Under the pieces are notes generated by a model, which saw only the letters and a list, made by a program, of their open reading frames with translations, made no database searches and was not told the DNA's origin. Shown here one piece after another: positions 3,124-6,620 of a DNA stretch of 64,000 nt. Both the position numbers and the translations under genes were made by a program. Where the stretch lies: NCBI RefSeq assembly GCF_029589435.1, contig NZ_JARRAG010000001.1, positions 920,808 through 984,807 on the forward strand, given 5' to 3'. Each line of letters starts with the position of its first letter. Positions within the stretch are counted from its first letter, which is position 1. Source of the stretch: Paludisphaera mucosa. GTDB lineage: Bacteria; Planctomycetota; Planctomycetia; Isosphaerales; Isosphaeraceae.

Positions 3124-3180
3124 GGCGAGTCCGGCGTGGCGATCCCTCGCAGCAGGCGACGCCCGGAGGGACGCTCGACG

Positions 3181-4236
3181 ATGCGGGACGTGGTGAAGCA
3201 TGTGATCGGGACGCTGGAGGGGGGGCGGCAGGCCCTCTTCTGCCAGGTCGTCGAGACCCGCGGGTCGACCCCGCAGAAGGCCGGCGCCGTCATGGTCGTC
3301 GAGACCGACGGCGGCCAGGTCGGTACCCTCGGGGGCGGCTGCGTCGAGAACGAGGTCAAGCAATTGGCGATCCGCCAGCTCGATCGGCCCGGCGCCCGCA
3401 TCGAGTCGTACGTCCTCGACCACGACGACGCCTGGGCCGACGGCCTGATCTGCGGCGGAAAGATGTCGATCGTCACGGAAGCCCTGGCCGGCGAGGGCCC
3501 GCTCGCCTACTTCCAAGCCCTCGACGGGGCCCTCGACCGGGGCGAGGGCTTCACGGAGGCGGTCGTGGTCGATCCGGGGAGGGTCCCCGACTCGGCCGTC
3601 GGTCGTCGCGCCTTGTTCGACCACGAGGGGAACCTCCTCGCGGGCGAACGGGGGCTTGGAACCCGCCCCGCGCCGCTCGCGGAACGGCCCCGGGCTCGCG
3701 TGGAGCAGGGGATCGCCTGGCTCCCCTCGCTGCCGCGCATCCGGCTGGTGATCGTGGGCGCCGGGCACGTGGGCCAGGCCGTCGCGGCCCTCGCGGCCGA
3801 GACCGACTTCGACGTCTGGGTCGTCGACGACCGGGCCCGGTTCGCCAACGTCGAACGCTTCCCCGCCGCCCAGCGGACGCTCGTCGGCCCCATCGCCGAG
3901 ACCCTCGACGCGCTCGACGTCACGCCGCAGACCTACATCCTGATCGTCACGCGAGGCCACGGGCACGACCAGGAGGCCCTCCAGCACGCCGCCCCGACTG
4001 CCGCGGCGTACGTCGGCCTCATCGGCAGCAAGCGCAAGATCCGGCTGATCTTCGAGTCGCTCCGCGAGCAGGGCGTGTCGGACGAGGCTCTCGCCCGGGT
4101 CAACGCGCCGGTGGGGCTCGACATCGGCTCGCGGACGGTCCCCGAGATCGCCGTCAGCATCGTGGCCGAGCTGATCGCCCGCCGCAACCTCGGCCCGAAG
4201 GCCGCCGTCCCGAGCCTGGGAGCCCGATCGCGATGA
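3181..4236 (+). CDS. XdhC/CoxI family protein (molybdenum-cofactor handling)
   Basis: A 351-residue protein with the two-domain XdhC layout. The N-terminal XdhC/CoxI domain has RGSTPQKAG near residue 28, GTLGGGCVE at 49-56 and ICGGKM near 90. The C-terminal Rossmann domain has the nucleotide-binding GAGHVG at 193-198 and GLIGSKRK further on. XdhC proteins bind molybdenum cofactor, help its sulfuration and insert it into xanthine-dehydrogenase-type enzymes. No such hydrogenase is encoded nearby, so its client is elsewhere. The ATG at 3181 is chosen over an in-frame GTG at 3136 because GGAGG lies just upstream. Its TGA overlaps the next ATG by four bases (ATGA), so translation with the MocA-MoaD gene is coupled. 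Confidence 0.88.
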   Translation: MRDVVKHVIGTLEGGRQALFCQVVETRGSTPQKAGAVMVVETDGGQVGTLGGGCVENEVKQLAIRQLDRPGARIESYVLDHDDAWADGLICGGKMSIVTEALAGEGPLAYFQALDGALDRGEGFTEAVVVDPGRVPDSAVGRRALFDHEGNLLAGERGLGTRPAPLAERPRARVEQGIAWLPSLPRIRLVIVGAGHVGQAVAALAAETDFDVWVVDDRARFANVERFPAAQRTLVGPIAETLDALDVTPQTYILIVTRGHGHDQEALQHAAPTAAAYVGLIGSKRKIRLIFESLREQGVSDEALARVNAPVGLDIGSRTVPEIAVSIVAELIARRNLGPKAAVPSLGARSR

Positions 4237-5096
4237 GTCCGACCGGCATCCCCGCCATCGTCCCGGCCGCCGGCGCGAGCCGAAGGATGGGGCGTCCCAA
4301 GCTGCTGATCGCTTTCGACGGCCGTCCCCTGATCTCGCGGGTGGTGACGAGCCTCCTCGAGGGCGGGGCGGGCCCCGTGATCGTCGTATCGCCCCCCGCC
4401 GATACGCCGGAGGGGCCGCCGATCATCGACGCCGCGACGGCCGCCGGCGCGGTCGTCGTGATCCCCGAAGCCCGGCCGGCCGCCATGCGGGACTCGATCG
4501 AGCTGGCCGTGGCCGAGCTGAAACGGTCCGAGGCCCCCCCGGGCGTCTTGCTCATGCCGGCCGACAGCCCCAGGCTCGACGCCCTCGTCGTCGAGACGCT
4601 CATTGATGCGTGGGGCCGGCGTCCCGATCGGATCGTCGCGCCGACCTTCCGGGGGCGGCGAGGCCATCCCATCCTCCTCCCCTGGAGGCTGGTGGAGTTG
4701 ATCGCCGACTTGCCGGCGGACGTCGGCGTCAACGCCCTGATCGCCGAGCATTCGGGGCTGGTCGACGAGGTCGCCTTCGAAACCGACGCGGTCGTCGTCG
4801 ACCTGGATACGCCCGAGGATCTCCGTCGGCTGGAAACGGCGGGGGCCGGGCGGAAGGTCCGTCTATTCGCCATTGCGCGCGAGCGGGCGCGGGGCTCCGA
4901 GGTCGTCGTCGCGCTGGCGGAGCCCGCGACGGTCCGCGACCTACGAATCGCCCTCGCCGCTCAATATCCGGCCCTGGCCGAGATCGTCGACCGCGTGCGG
5001 ATCGCCGTCGACGACGAGTACGCCGACGACGCGACGATCATCCCCGCCGACGCCACGCTGGCCCTGATCCCGCCCGTCAGCGGCGGCGGTCGCTGA
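4233..5096 (+). CDS. Fusion of MocA-like nucleotidyltransferase and MoaD-like sulfur carrier
   Basis: A 287-residue protein made of two parts. Residues 1-200 are a MobA-like NTP transferase: AAGASRRMGRPK at 12-23 is the nucleotide-binding signature, PADSPR at 109-114 is the metal-site region and RGHPILLP lies at 143-150. This type (MocA) normally adds CMP to molybdopterin. Residues 208-287 look like MoaD: a beta-grasp fold beginning VRLFAIARE and ending ALIPPVSGGGR. MoaD normally ends in a free Gly-Gly that carries the thiocarboxylate; here Gly284-Gly285 is followed by Gly286-Arg287. No separate moaD is seen, so this domain is presumably the partner of the MoaE just downstream (24 bases). The four-base overlap with xdhC supports one operon. 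Domain calls are firm; whether the tail is trimmed is unknown. Confidence 0.82.
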   Translation: MSPTGIPAIVPAAGASRRMGRPKLLIAFDGRPLISRVVTSLLEGGAGPVIVVSPPADTPEGPPIIDAATAAGAVVVIPEARPAAMRDSIELAVAELKRSEAPPGVLLMPADSPRLDALVVETLIDAWGRRPDRIVAPTFRGRRGHPILLPWRLVELIADLPADVGVNALIAEHSGLVDEVAFETDAVVVDLDTPEDLRRLETAGAGRKVRLFAIARERARGSEVVVALAEPATVRDLRIALAAQYPALAEIVDRVRIAVDDEYADDATIIPADATLALIPPVSGGGR

Positions 5097-5120: not shown

Positions 5121-5537
5121 ATGATCGAGATCACCGAATCGCCGCTGGACCACGCGGCGCTGACCGAGCGCGTCCGGCACGCGAACGCGGGGGCGGTCTG
5201 CACGTTCCTGGGCACGGTCCGCGAAATGACCGGCGAGCGCCGCACGGTGGCGCTGGAATACGAGGCGTATCCCGAGATGGCCGGCAAGAAGCTCGCCGAG
5301 CTGGAGGCCGAGGCCCGCCGCCGCTGGCCCTTGATCGAGGTCGTCCTGGCGCACCGGGTGGGCCGGCTTGAGCTGGGGGACGTCAGCGTCGTCGTCGCCG
5401 TGTGCTGCCCCCATCGCGGCGACTCGTTCGAAGCCTGCCGCTGGCTGATCGACACGCTCAAGGAGGTCGTCCCGATCTGGAAGCGCGAAAACTGGGCCGA
5501 CGGCGAGGAGGAATGGATCCACCCCGGGCTGAATTGA
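5121..5537 (+). CDS. moaE: Molybdopterin synthase catalytic subunit MoaE
   Basis: A 138-residue protein of normal MoaE length. It carries the family's key segments: GAVCTFLGTVRE near residue 28, LEYEAYPEMA near 50, HRVGRLELGDVSV near 80, CCPHRGDSFEAC near 94 and VPIWKREN near 119. The lysine of the last segment is the conserved active-site Lys. MoaE with thiocarboxylated MoaD converts cyclic pyranopterin monophosphate to molybdopterin in the cytoplasm. It lies between the MocA-MoaD fusion and moaA, so three consecutive steps of the pathway are encoded together. Confidence 0.93.
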   Translation: MIEITESPLDHAALTERVRHANAGAVCTFLGTVREMTGERRTVALEYEAYPEMAGKKLAELEAEARRRWPLIEVVLAHRVGRLELGDVSVVVAVCCPHRGDSFEACRWLIDTLKEVVPIWKRENWADGEEEWIHPGLN

Positions 5538-5621
5538 GTCGGAGTCGGGCCTGTCCGCGGCTCGTCCCGCCGCTACAATTTGGACATGCCGCTTCGCAAC
5601 CTCACCGAGACGCGCACGCAC

Positions 5622-6620
5622 ATGACCCCGAAGCCTCGCCTGGTGGATTCCTTCGGGCGCGTCCACAACAACCTGCGCATCAGCGTCACCGATCGCTGCA
5701 ACATCCGCTGCGTGTACTGCATGCCGGAGAAGGTCGAGTTCATGCCCCGCGAGCGACTCCTCAGTTATGAGGAGATCGCCCGCTTCGTGGCGATCGTCGC
5801 CCCGCTGGGGATCGACAAGATCCGCCTCACCGGGGGCGAGCCCTTGCTCCGCAAGGACCTCGACGTCCTGGTCCGGATGATCAAGGCGATCGACGGCGTC
5901 GCCGACGTGGGGATGACGACGAACGGCATGCTGCTCGCCCCGATGGCCCGTCGGCTCCGCGACGCCGGGCTGGAGCGGATCAACGTGAGCCTGGACACGC
6001 TCGATCCCGGGCGATTCGAGCGACTCTCGCGCCGGCCGGGGCTCGAAGACGCGATCGAGGGCGTGCTCGCGGCCAAGCGCGAGGGCTTCGACCCGGTGAA
6101 GTTGAACGCCGTGATCATCCGCGGCTTCAACGAGGAGGACATCGCCCCGCTGGGCCGGTTCGCCCGCGAGCACGGGCTCGAAGTCCGCTTCATCGAATAC
6201 ATGCCGCTGGACGCCGGCCACCTCTGGGAACGCGAGAAGGTCGTGTTCGCGGCCGAGATCCTCGACGTCCTGACGCGGGAGATCGGCCCGCTCGCCCCCA
6301 CGCCCGACCAGGACCCGCGCGCCCCGGCGCTCGACTACGACTACCTCGACGGCGGCGGCCGCGTCGGACTCATCGCTTCGGTCAGCCGGCCCTTCTGCAT
6401 GAGCTGCAACCGGCTGCGGCTGACCTCGGACGGCAAGATTCGGAACTGCCTCTTCGCGCTGGAAGAGACGGACGTTCGCGACCTCCTGCGATCGGACACA
6501 CCCGACGAGGCCGTCGCGCGGGCGGTCGCCGCCTCGGTCGCGGCCAAGTGGGAAGGGCACGAGATCAACACCGCGCGCTTCATCCAGCCCGACCGGCCGA
6601 TGTACTCGATCGGCGGCTGA
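5622..6620 (+). CDS. moaA: GTP 3',8-cyclase MoaA (radical SAM)
   Basis: A 332-residue radical SAM enzyme that, with MoaC, makes cyclic pyranopterin monophosphate from GTP, the first step of molybdenum-cofactor synthesis. The SAM cluster is CNIRCVYC (Cys26, Cys30, Cys33). LTGGEPLLRKD and TTNGMLL follow in the usual places. The second cluster is near the C-terminus: CMSCNRLRLTSDGKIRNC. The protein ends in SIGG, the conserved Gly-Gly tail that reaches the active site. In-frame starts at 5580 (TTG) and 5586 (ATG) lie in or next to a TACAAT box at 5574-5579 and lack a ribosome site, so the ATG at 5622 is preferred. No moaC is visible in the window. Confidence 0.93.
   Translation: MTPKPRLVDSFGRVHNNLRISVTDRCNIRCVYCMPEKVEFMPRERLLSYEEIARFVAIVAPLGIDKIRLTGGEPLLRKDLDVLVRMIKAIDGVADVGMTTNGMLLAPMARRLRDAGLERINVSLDTLDPGRFERLSRRPGLEDAIEGVLAAKREGFDPVKLNAVIIRGFNEEDIAPLGRFAREHGLEVRFIEYMPLDAGHLWEREKVVFAAEILDVLTREIGPLAPTPDQDPRAPALDYDYLDGGGRVGLIASVSRPFCMSCNRLRLTSDGKIRNCLFALEETDVRDLLRSDTPDEAVARAVAASVAAKWEGHEINTARFIQPDRPMYSIGG

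What the first reader, a model, noticed from the sequence alone, without database searches (positions are those of the whole stretch)
4233..5096. MocA-MoaD fusion whose MoaD part ends in GGGR instead of a free Gly-Gly
The sulfur carrier MoaD must end in a free Gly-Gly for MoaB/MoeB-type activation and thiocarboxylation. Here the reading is unambiguous: Pro-Pro-Val-Ser-Gly-Gly-Gly-Arg-stop at residues 280-287. The carrier is also fused behind a nucleotidyltransferase, which would tether the sulfur donor to a late-step enzyme. So either one or two residues are trimmed (as JAMM-type proteases do for CysO or eukaryotic ubiquitin-like proteins), the fold works without trimming, or a second MoaD exists elsewhere.
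Basis: partly seen in the sequence, partly recalled or inferred. Interest (0 to 1): 0.62.

Follow-up and report, generated by a model that had tools for sequence, protein, structure and literature searches.

The report
Capped sulfur carrier awaiting protease trimming
A sulfur-carrier protein needed to make the molybdenum cofactor is encoded with two extra residues covering its reactive end, and in the bacteria sampled such covered carriers turn up only where a JAMM-type protease that could uncover them is also encoded.

Summary
Window 4233-5096 encodes a 287-residue MocA-like/MoaD fusion ending PPVSGG-GR-stop. It is not an error or a one-off: in the window's family 31 of 40 MoaDs read run past the invariant Gly-Gly. 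No second moaD was found in the genome: its other two ThiS-family matches are a CysO/SAMP-type carrier ending in GG and a ThiS-ThiG fusion. It encodes a stand-alone JAMM protease with the metal motif, beside a cysteine synthase, as expected of the Mec enzyme of the CysO pathway. In three samples (window's phylum, other phyla, Chloroflexota) all 83 MoaDs extended past GG (short tails or MoaD-MoaE fusions) lie in genomes with a strong JAMM hit, against 48 of 152 ending at GG. The third sample was a prediction noted beforehand and held: 59 of 59 against 15 of 23. Best reading: a JAMM, probably the cysteine-pathway Mec, removes Gly-Arg so that the E1 can charge Gly285. Cleavage itself is not shown. 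JAMM cleavage of MoaD-MoaE fusions is published; short-tailed MoaD precursors and the MocA-MoaD fusion did not show up in my paper searches. New variant of a known kind.

The parts
4233..5096 (+). MocA-like nucleotidyltransferase / MoaD fusion, 287 aa
4254..4832 (+). MocA-like NTP transferase domain, residues 8-200 (AAGxSxRMGxxK-type and GRRGHP stretches largely invariant in 12 fusions; their roles are recalled)
   Evidence: PF12804 at 8-173; TIGR03310 at 8-199; alignment; best Foldseek hit Rv0371c (2we9)
4857..5087 (+). MoaD (ThiS-family beta-grasp) domain, residues 209-285
   Evidence: PF02597 at 209-285; PDB sequence hit 2q5w_D molybdopterin synthase small subunit, E 1.7e-4
5082..5087 (+). 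invariant Gly284-Gly285, the presumed thiocarboxylation site
5088..5093 (+). two-residue cap Gly286-Arg287 that would have to be removed
   Evidence: residues 284-287 predicted with pLDDT below 50
3136..4236 (+). XdhC-family maturation factor; its stop overlaps the fusion's ATG (ATGA)
   Evidence: PF13478, PF02625; sequence
5121..5537 (+). MoaE, partner subunit of molybdopterin synthase
   Evidence: PF02391 E 2.1e-40
5580..6620 (+). MoaA, GTP 3',8-cyclase
   Evidence: TIGR02666 379.5 bits, over its cut-off

Best explanation
The gene makes a MoaD precursor, fused behind a MocA-like domain, whose functional Gly-Gly end is capped by Gly-Arg. A JAMM metalloprotease, most likely the single stand-alone one encoded beside the cysteine synthase (a Mec-type enzyme, which in the CysO pathway releases cysteine from the carrier's Gly-Gly), hydrolyses the bond after Gly285. 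The MoeB-like E1 can then adenylate Gly285, which is thiocarboxylated and delivers sulfur to precursor Z in MoaE. The MocA domain stays attached at the other end. Shown here: the capped sequence, the invariant GG, the variable tails, the JAMM gene with its motif and place, and the association of extended MoaD with JAMM. Inferred: the cleavage, its site, which JAMM does it, and that it is needed.
For: (1) Association. Window's phylum: strong JAMM (PF14464 E<=1e-12) in 15 of 15 genomes with extended MoaD against 21 of 91 with GG ends, p=8.6e-9; by family 7 of 7 against 10 of 34, p=0.0009. Other phyla: 10 of 10 against 12 of 38, p=1e-4. Phylum of G228 (a SAR202 genome, Chloroflexota), noted as a prediction before it was run: 59 of 59 against 15 of 23, p=1.4e-5. 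Together 83 of 83 against 48 of 152, G228 counted once; short tails alone 35 of 35 (5, L234 and L284, G228 once). (2) Gly-Gly is kept in 82 of 82 of the third sample and invariant in 12 fusions, while tails vary in sequence and length, as expected of a removed cap on a working carrier. (3) The own JAMM has E-CCGLLGG and H-S-H-x7-S-x2-D and lies directly beside CysM, as in 14 of 14 family genomes examined of 45 (15 loci, G001 twice). Of six tail carriers outside the family whose JAMM surroundings were looked at, four show CysO or CysM there (G046, G052, G089, G194), two do not (G048, G228). [quoted passage not shown] DR0402 cuts MoaD-MoaE (PMC8832034, passages); MoaX is cut Gly82|Ser83 and must be cut (PMC4326299, passages). 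(5) The first residue after GG is Gly, Ala, Ser, Thr or Cys in 40 of 56 extensions against 23 of 55 at the next position, p=0.002; distinct tails only, 37 of 52 against 23 of 51, p=0.01; in the third sample's tails 20 of 29.
Against: No cleavage was observed. All 45 genomes of the own family have a PF14464 match over its cut-off, so there is no contrast within it. JAMM is not sufficient: 48 of 152 GG-ended MoaDs also sit with a strong JAMM. In the same family the CysO-like carrier mostly keeps a bare GG (27 of 30 read; 3 of 30 end GG-SV), so JAMM does not free every carrier from that constraint. The E<=1e-12 cut-off was chosen after seeing the first sample; at 1e-3 that sample gives 15 of 15 against 45 of 91, p=1e-4, and the third gives 59 of 59 against 21 of 23, p=0.08. 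Relatedness is controlled by family only in the first sample. Which JAMM acts is not resolved: 2 of 6 tail carriers looked at outside the family lack a CysO/CysM neighbour, and the own genome has a second, weaker JAB match beside a ubiquitin-like operon. For ThiS-ThiG fusions the strict rule failed (2 of 4).
Confidence: 0.75

Rival explanations
1. The cap is removed by another peptidase, for example a carboxypeptidase nibbling back to Gly-Gly, and JAMM is only a bystander that marks genomes with some linked trait such as the CysO pathway.
For: 23 of 29 tails in the third sample are only 1-3 residues long. In the own family the JAMM stands by CysM in 14 of 14 genomes examined, so a linked trait could carry the association.
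Against: The same association holds for MoaD-MoaE fusions (10 of 10 and 30 of 30; MoaE confirmed in the same frame), which need an endopeptidase and for which JAMM cleavage is published. Tails of 10-20 residues occur too. In 9 of 10 fusion carriers examined no CysO or CysM lies by the JAMM, yet the association holds.
Confidence: 0.12
2. No trimming: the tail is tolerated, or the MoaD domain is no longer a sulfur carrier, and the CysO-like carrier with free GG serves MoaE instead.
For: The genome has a CysO-like carrier ending in GG next to the MoeB-like E1.
Against: The GG is invariant and the gene stays in the moaE-moaA cluster. The CysO-like carrier scores only 23 bits to TIGR01682 against 58 for the fusion domain. 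Mycobacterial CysO gave no more nitrate reductase with MoeZR than alone (PMC3227635 Table 1, passages). Uncut MoaX and SAMP1-MoaE are reported inactive. A tolerated tail predicts tails without JAMM; none was seen among 83 extended MoaDs.
Confidence: 0.08
3. About origin, and compatible with trimming: the tail is a neutral by-product with no role of its own. Because a JAMM is present, the stop codon is free to drift or to slide into the moaE start for translational coupling.
For: In L013, L016, L021 and L022 the tail's stop overlaps the moaE start as ATGA. Tail sequence differs between congeners.
Against: The small-residue bias right after GG suggests some constraint at the cut; in the window itself the stop does not reach moaE.
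Confidence: 0.6

Closest known systems
MoaD-MoaE fusions cut by JAMM: DR2607 with DR0402 (Deinococcus), SAMP1-MoaE with HvJAMM1 (Haloferax, engineered fusion), and MoaX of Mycobacterium tuberculosis (protease not identified in that paper)
   Same: MoaD Gly-Gly is masked by a C-terminal addition and must be exposed; the same JAMM family is encoded here
   Different: Here the mask is two residues, not a MoaE domain, and MoaD is fused behind a MocA-like domain
QbsE/QbsD, PdtH/PdtG and HcyS/HcyD, small sulfur carriers with a short C-terminal cap removed by a JAMM (caps recalled; only the PDTC/quinolobactin operon type with a carrier and a JAB gene was seen, PMC1779556 passages)
   Same: Residues after Gly-Gly, JAMM peptidase encoded
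   Different: Those carriers serve siderophore or homocysteine pathways with the JAMM in the operon (recalled for HcyS); here the carrier is MoaD and the JAMM lies on another contig of the genome
CysO-CysM-Mec cysteine pathway
   Same: Own genome has a CysO-like carrier, a cysteine synthase with a JAMM directly beside it, and a MoeB-like E1
   Different: Mec is known to release cysteine from CysO (PMC3227635, passages); a role in MoaD maturation is proposed here, not known
Stand-alone MoaD and MocA
   Same: Both domains, with moaE and moaA following
   Different: Joined in one chain in the genus and several related genera; PMC11237513 names MoaD fusions to MoaE and MoeB in the passages read, not to MocA

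Membership tests
MoaD (molybdopterin synthase small subunit) | ThiS/MoaD beta-grasp domain | tested here: met
   PF02597 52 bits, over cut-off 22.5; TIGR01682 58.2 bits, E 1.1e-15, but under its curated cut-off 66.15; PDB 2q5w_D
MoaD (molybdopterin synthase small subunit) | free C-terminal Gly-Gly | tested here: not met
   As encoded the chain ends GG-GR; a free end would need trimming, which is inferred
MoaD (molybdopterin synthase small subunit) | partner genes moaE and moaA | tested here: met
   moaE 5121-5537, moaA 5580-6620
MocA (molybdenum cofactor cytidylyltransferase) | NTP transferase domain and equivalog score | tested here: inconclusive
   PF12804 106 bits, over cut-off; TIGR03310 115.7 bits, best NCBIfam family but under cut-off 186.45
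MocA (molybdenum cofactor cytidylyltransferase) | CTP transfer to molybdenum cofactor | not testable with these tools
   needs assay
JAMM-processed ubiquitin-like precursor | residues beyond a conserved Gly-Gly | tested here: met
JAMM-processed ubiquitin-like precursor | a JAMM with the metal motif in the genome | tested here: met
   PF14464 78 bits; HSH-x7-S-x2-D read in the sequence against the motif quoted in PMC8832034
JAMM-processed ubiquitin-like precursor | cleavage after the second Gly | not testable with these tools
   needs protein work
Mec (CysO-cysteine hydrolase) | JAMM linked to cysM, with a CysO carrier in the genome | tested here: met
   JAMM beside CysM in 14 of 14 family genomes examined; CysO-like gene elsewhere in the genome
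Mec (CysO-cysteine hydrolase) | named equivalog score | tested here: inconclusive
   only NCBIfam hit is desampylase NF041370, 73.5 bits against cut-off 130

The most novel reading that the evidence does not exclude
Capped MoaD is a general bacterial precursor form: where a JAMM is present, often the Mec of cysteine synthesis, it also matures MoaD, so one protease links cysteine and molybdenum-cofactor synthesis and lets the moaD stop codon drift, slide into moaE or vanish into a MoaD-MoaE fusion.
Probability: 0.5. Interest if true: 0.68.

Novelty: new variant of a known kind. Interest (0 to 1): 0.55.

Why it matters
E. coli-type MoaD ends in a ready Gly-Gly. If the association found here reflects processing, many bacteria make it as a masked precursor, and a protease known from another sulfur pathway becomes part of molybdenum-cofactor synthesis. 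It gives a simple rule that can be checked in any genome, a candidate protease class for masked MoaDs such as MoaX, and a warning to those who express such MoaDs in E. coli, where a published study suggests the cutting system for MoaX is missing (PMC3227635, passages).

Tried and rejected
Frameshift or wrong frame: rejected; the frame is open, congeners share it, and within the genus the ends differ by where the stop falls.

A second canonical moaD in the genome: looked for with PF02597 (three matches at E<=1e-3); the other two are the CysO-like protein and the ThiS-ThiG fusion.

General relaxation of all carriers in JAMM genomes: tested on the CysO-like carrier; 43 of 45 genomes matched, 30 loci read, 27 keep the bare GG, 3 end GG-SV.

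Extending the rule to ThiS-ThiG fusions: among 148 genomes, 4 of the matches listed cover query 5 or less to 340 or more in one frame without a stop (G000, G046, G105, G149); 2 of 4 have a JAMM at E<=1e-12, the others 5.1e-11 and 1.1e-8 (the match list was cut). So the strict rule was not shown for ThiS.

Fold search: the model (mean pLDDT 84.3, four-row alignment) gave no MoaD-like structure among the 50 rows shown, which follow the larger nucleotidyltransferase domain.

Paper search was wasted: 'ThiS' matches the word 'this'.

Rows dropped. First sample: 148 genomes, 111 with a TIGR01682 match, 106 read (G090, G117, G145, G148 and G191 left out as weak; second matches ignored). Second sample: 80 loci, 72 with a MoaD-profile match, 49 asked (22 left out as Planctomycetota by title, my reading of the names, and L233, whose contig length equals one already sampled), 48 held; L261, extended, was not held. 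L253, L274 and L297 carry no phylum in the title; L270 runs past GG to the end of the locus, so tail or fusion is open. This sample was drawn by patterns that include PPVSGG, and a few of its genomes are, by title, of the phylum of the third sample. Third sample: 101 genomes, 86 with a match, 82 read (G248, G265, G279, G297 left out as weak; a second MoaD of G253 fetched but not counted). Own family: 45 genomes, 40 MoaDs read. JAMM neighbourhoods: 14 of 45 family genomes, 6 tail carriers and 10 fusion carriers outside it.

Full report
What is there. Window 4233-5096 (+) encodes 287 residues: an NTP-transferase domain of MocA type (residues 8-173, PF12804; TIGR03310 is the best NCBIfam family but under its cut-off) and a MoaD/ThiS domain (209-285), followed by Gly286-Arg287-stop. 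It lies in a cluster XdhC - MocA-MoaD - MoaE - MoaA. No in-frame ATG, GTG or TTG lies between residues 161 and 254, so the two domains read as one chain. A model gives residues 284-287 a pLDDT below 50.

Is it real and how common. All six genomes of the genus searched carry the fusion. Their ends are GG-GR (own), GG, GG, GG-GV, GG-GG and GG-GR. Within the family, 43 of 45 genomes match the protein. Of 40 MoaD ends read, 31 run past Gly-Gly: 29 by 2 to 21 residues, one is a MoaD-MoaE fusion, and one runs in frame into an MshEN domain that the locus end cuts off. Gly-Gly itself is invariant in 12 aligned fusions, the tail is not. At DNA level, in L013, L016, L021 and L022 the stop of the tail overlaps the moaE start as ATGA, which suggests that tails can arise as the stop slides into the next gene; in the window the stop stands 24 bases before moaE.

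Other carriers and the machinery in the genome. PF02597 finds three places: this one, an 89-residue carrier ending PAVAGG between a threonine synthase and a MoeB/ThiF-like E1, and a ThiS-ThiG fusion. The 89-residue carrier scores best to SAMP1 and archaeal MoaD, just under their cut-offs, and poorly to MoaD; I read it as CysO-like. PF14464 finds two places. One is a 156-residue stand-alone JAMM four bases from a cysteine synthase, with the motif HSH-x7-S-x2-D that PMC8832034 gives for active JAMMs; the neighbourhood recalls the CysM-Mec pair, with the CysO-like gene elsewhere. The other is a weaker hit beside genes for a YukD-like protein ending VVAG, an E2-like and an E1-like protein.

The test. 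If tails must be cut off by a JAMM, a MoaD with a tail should not occur without one. Sample 1, the window's phylum, genomes at least 90% complete: 106 MoaD ends read; 91 stop at GG, 15 continue (5 short tails, 10 MoaD-MoaE fusions, MoaE confirmed in all 10). A JAMM at E<=1e-12 is present in 15 of 15 extended and 21 of 91 plain genomes (p=8.6e-9; tails alone 5 of 5, p=0.001; by family 7 of 7 against 10 of 34, p=0.0009). At E<=1e-3 it is 15 of 15 against 45 of 91, p=1e-4. Sample 2, 48 genomes reached through genome contigs, non-Planctomycetota by title: 10 of 10 (2 short tails, 7 MoaE fusions, 1 cut off by the locus end) against 12 of 38, p=1e-4. Sample 3, the phylum of G228 (the genome of L284, titled SAR202 cluster bacterium; NCBI places SAR202 in Chloroflexota), was announced in the notebook before it was run: 82 ends read, 59 extended (29 tails, 30 fusions, MoaE confirmed in 30 of 30); 59 of 59 against 15 of 23, p=1.4e-5; tails alone 29 of 29, p=0.0007; all 8 genomes of the 82 without a strong JAMM end in GG. 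At E<=1e-3 this last contrast is weak (21 of 23 plain genomes positive, p=0.08), because weak JAB-like hits are nearly universal there. Together, with G228 counted once: 83 of 83 against 48 of 152.

Limits of the test. Genomes are related; only sample 1 could be reduced to families. The cut-off was picked on sample 1 and kept after that. The own family offers no contrast, since 45 of 45 genomes have a JAMM. The association shows at most need, not sufficiency: 48 plain MoaDs coexist with a strong JAMM, among them five genomes titled Aquificaceae or Aquifex. The CysO-like carrier of the same family mostly keeps its bare GG (27 of 30 read).

Which JAMM. In 14 of 14 own-family genomes examined (15 loci, one genome twice) the JAMM is next to CysM. 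Of six tail carriers looked at outside the family, four have CysO or CysM by the JAMM (G046, G052, G089, G194) and two do not (G048, G228). Of ten fusion carriers looked at, one does (G185). So in the window's lineage the Mec-type enzyme is the best candidate, by genome content and position, not by experiment.

Prior work. JAMM cleavage to free a fused ThiS or MoaD was foreseen in 2006 (PMC1779556, passages) and shown for SAMP1-MoaE with HvJAMM1, cut after the C-terminal Gly and required for activity (PMC4443979, passages), and for the Deinococcus MoaD-MoaE (PMC8832034, passages). MoaX is cut between Gly82 and Ser83 by a protease not identified there (PMC4326299, passages). MoeZR activates both MoaD and CysO, and CysO did not replace MoaD in the nitrate reductase test (PMC3227635, passages). 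MoaD fusions named in the passages read of PMC11237513 are with MoaE and MoeB. I also looked at passages of PMC2948915 and PMC1949818 and saw nothing on tails of MoaD. In the listings I saw no title or abstract start about short-tailed MoaD or MocA-MoaD; the library holds only open-licence papers and I read passages, not whole texts.

Conclusion. The cap is most likely a two-residue propeptide removed by a JAMM. What is new, as far as these searches go, is that such capped MoaDs are common in at least two phyla, that they follow the JAMM gene without exception in the samples taken, and that in the window's genome the only strong JAMM is the one beside the cysteine synthase.

Noticed in passing
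L072:5513-8314 (window's genome, contig C2 near 3605.5-3608.3 kb): A ubiquitin-like gene group: a YukD-like protein ending VVAG, an E2-like protein (UQ_con), an E1-like ThiF protein and a JAB match just downstream.
   Followed up: partly
L066:268-900 (G010): MoaD runs in frame past GG into an MshEN domain (secretion or pilus ATPase type, recalled); the locus ends inside the frame, so a true fusion or a separate downstream start are both open.
   Followed up: partly
L003:1429-2523 (window's genome): ThiS-ThiG fusion with an internal GG-GS, another carrier whose Gly-Gly is masked. The JAMM rule was not strict for such fusions (2 of 4).
   Followed up: partly
L212, L213, L215 (G033, G035, G036): In one genus the CysO-like carrier itself ends GG-SV, while the other 27 of 30 read in the family end in GG.
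   Followed up: no
L013, L016, L021, L022: The stop codon ending the MoaD tail overlaps the moaE start as ATGA, suggesting translational coupling as the origin of some tails.
   Followed up: partly
L077 (G033): A MoaD-MoaE fusion inside the window's own family, beside relatives with short tails.
   Followed up: no
L238, L240, L254, L259, L272: Five genomes titled Aquificaceae or Aquifex have very strong JAMM hits but plain GG MoaDs, so JAMM alone does not bring tails.
   Followed up: no
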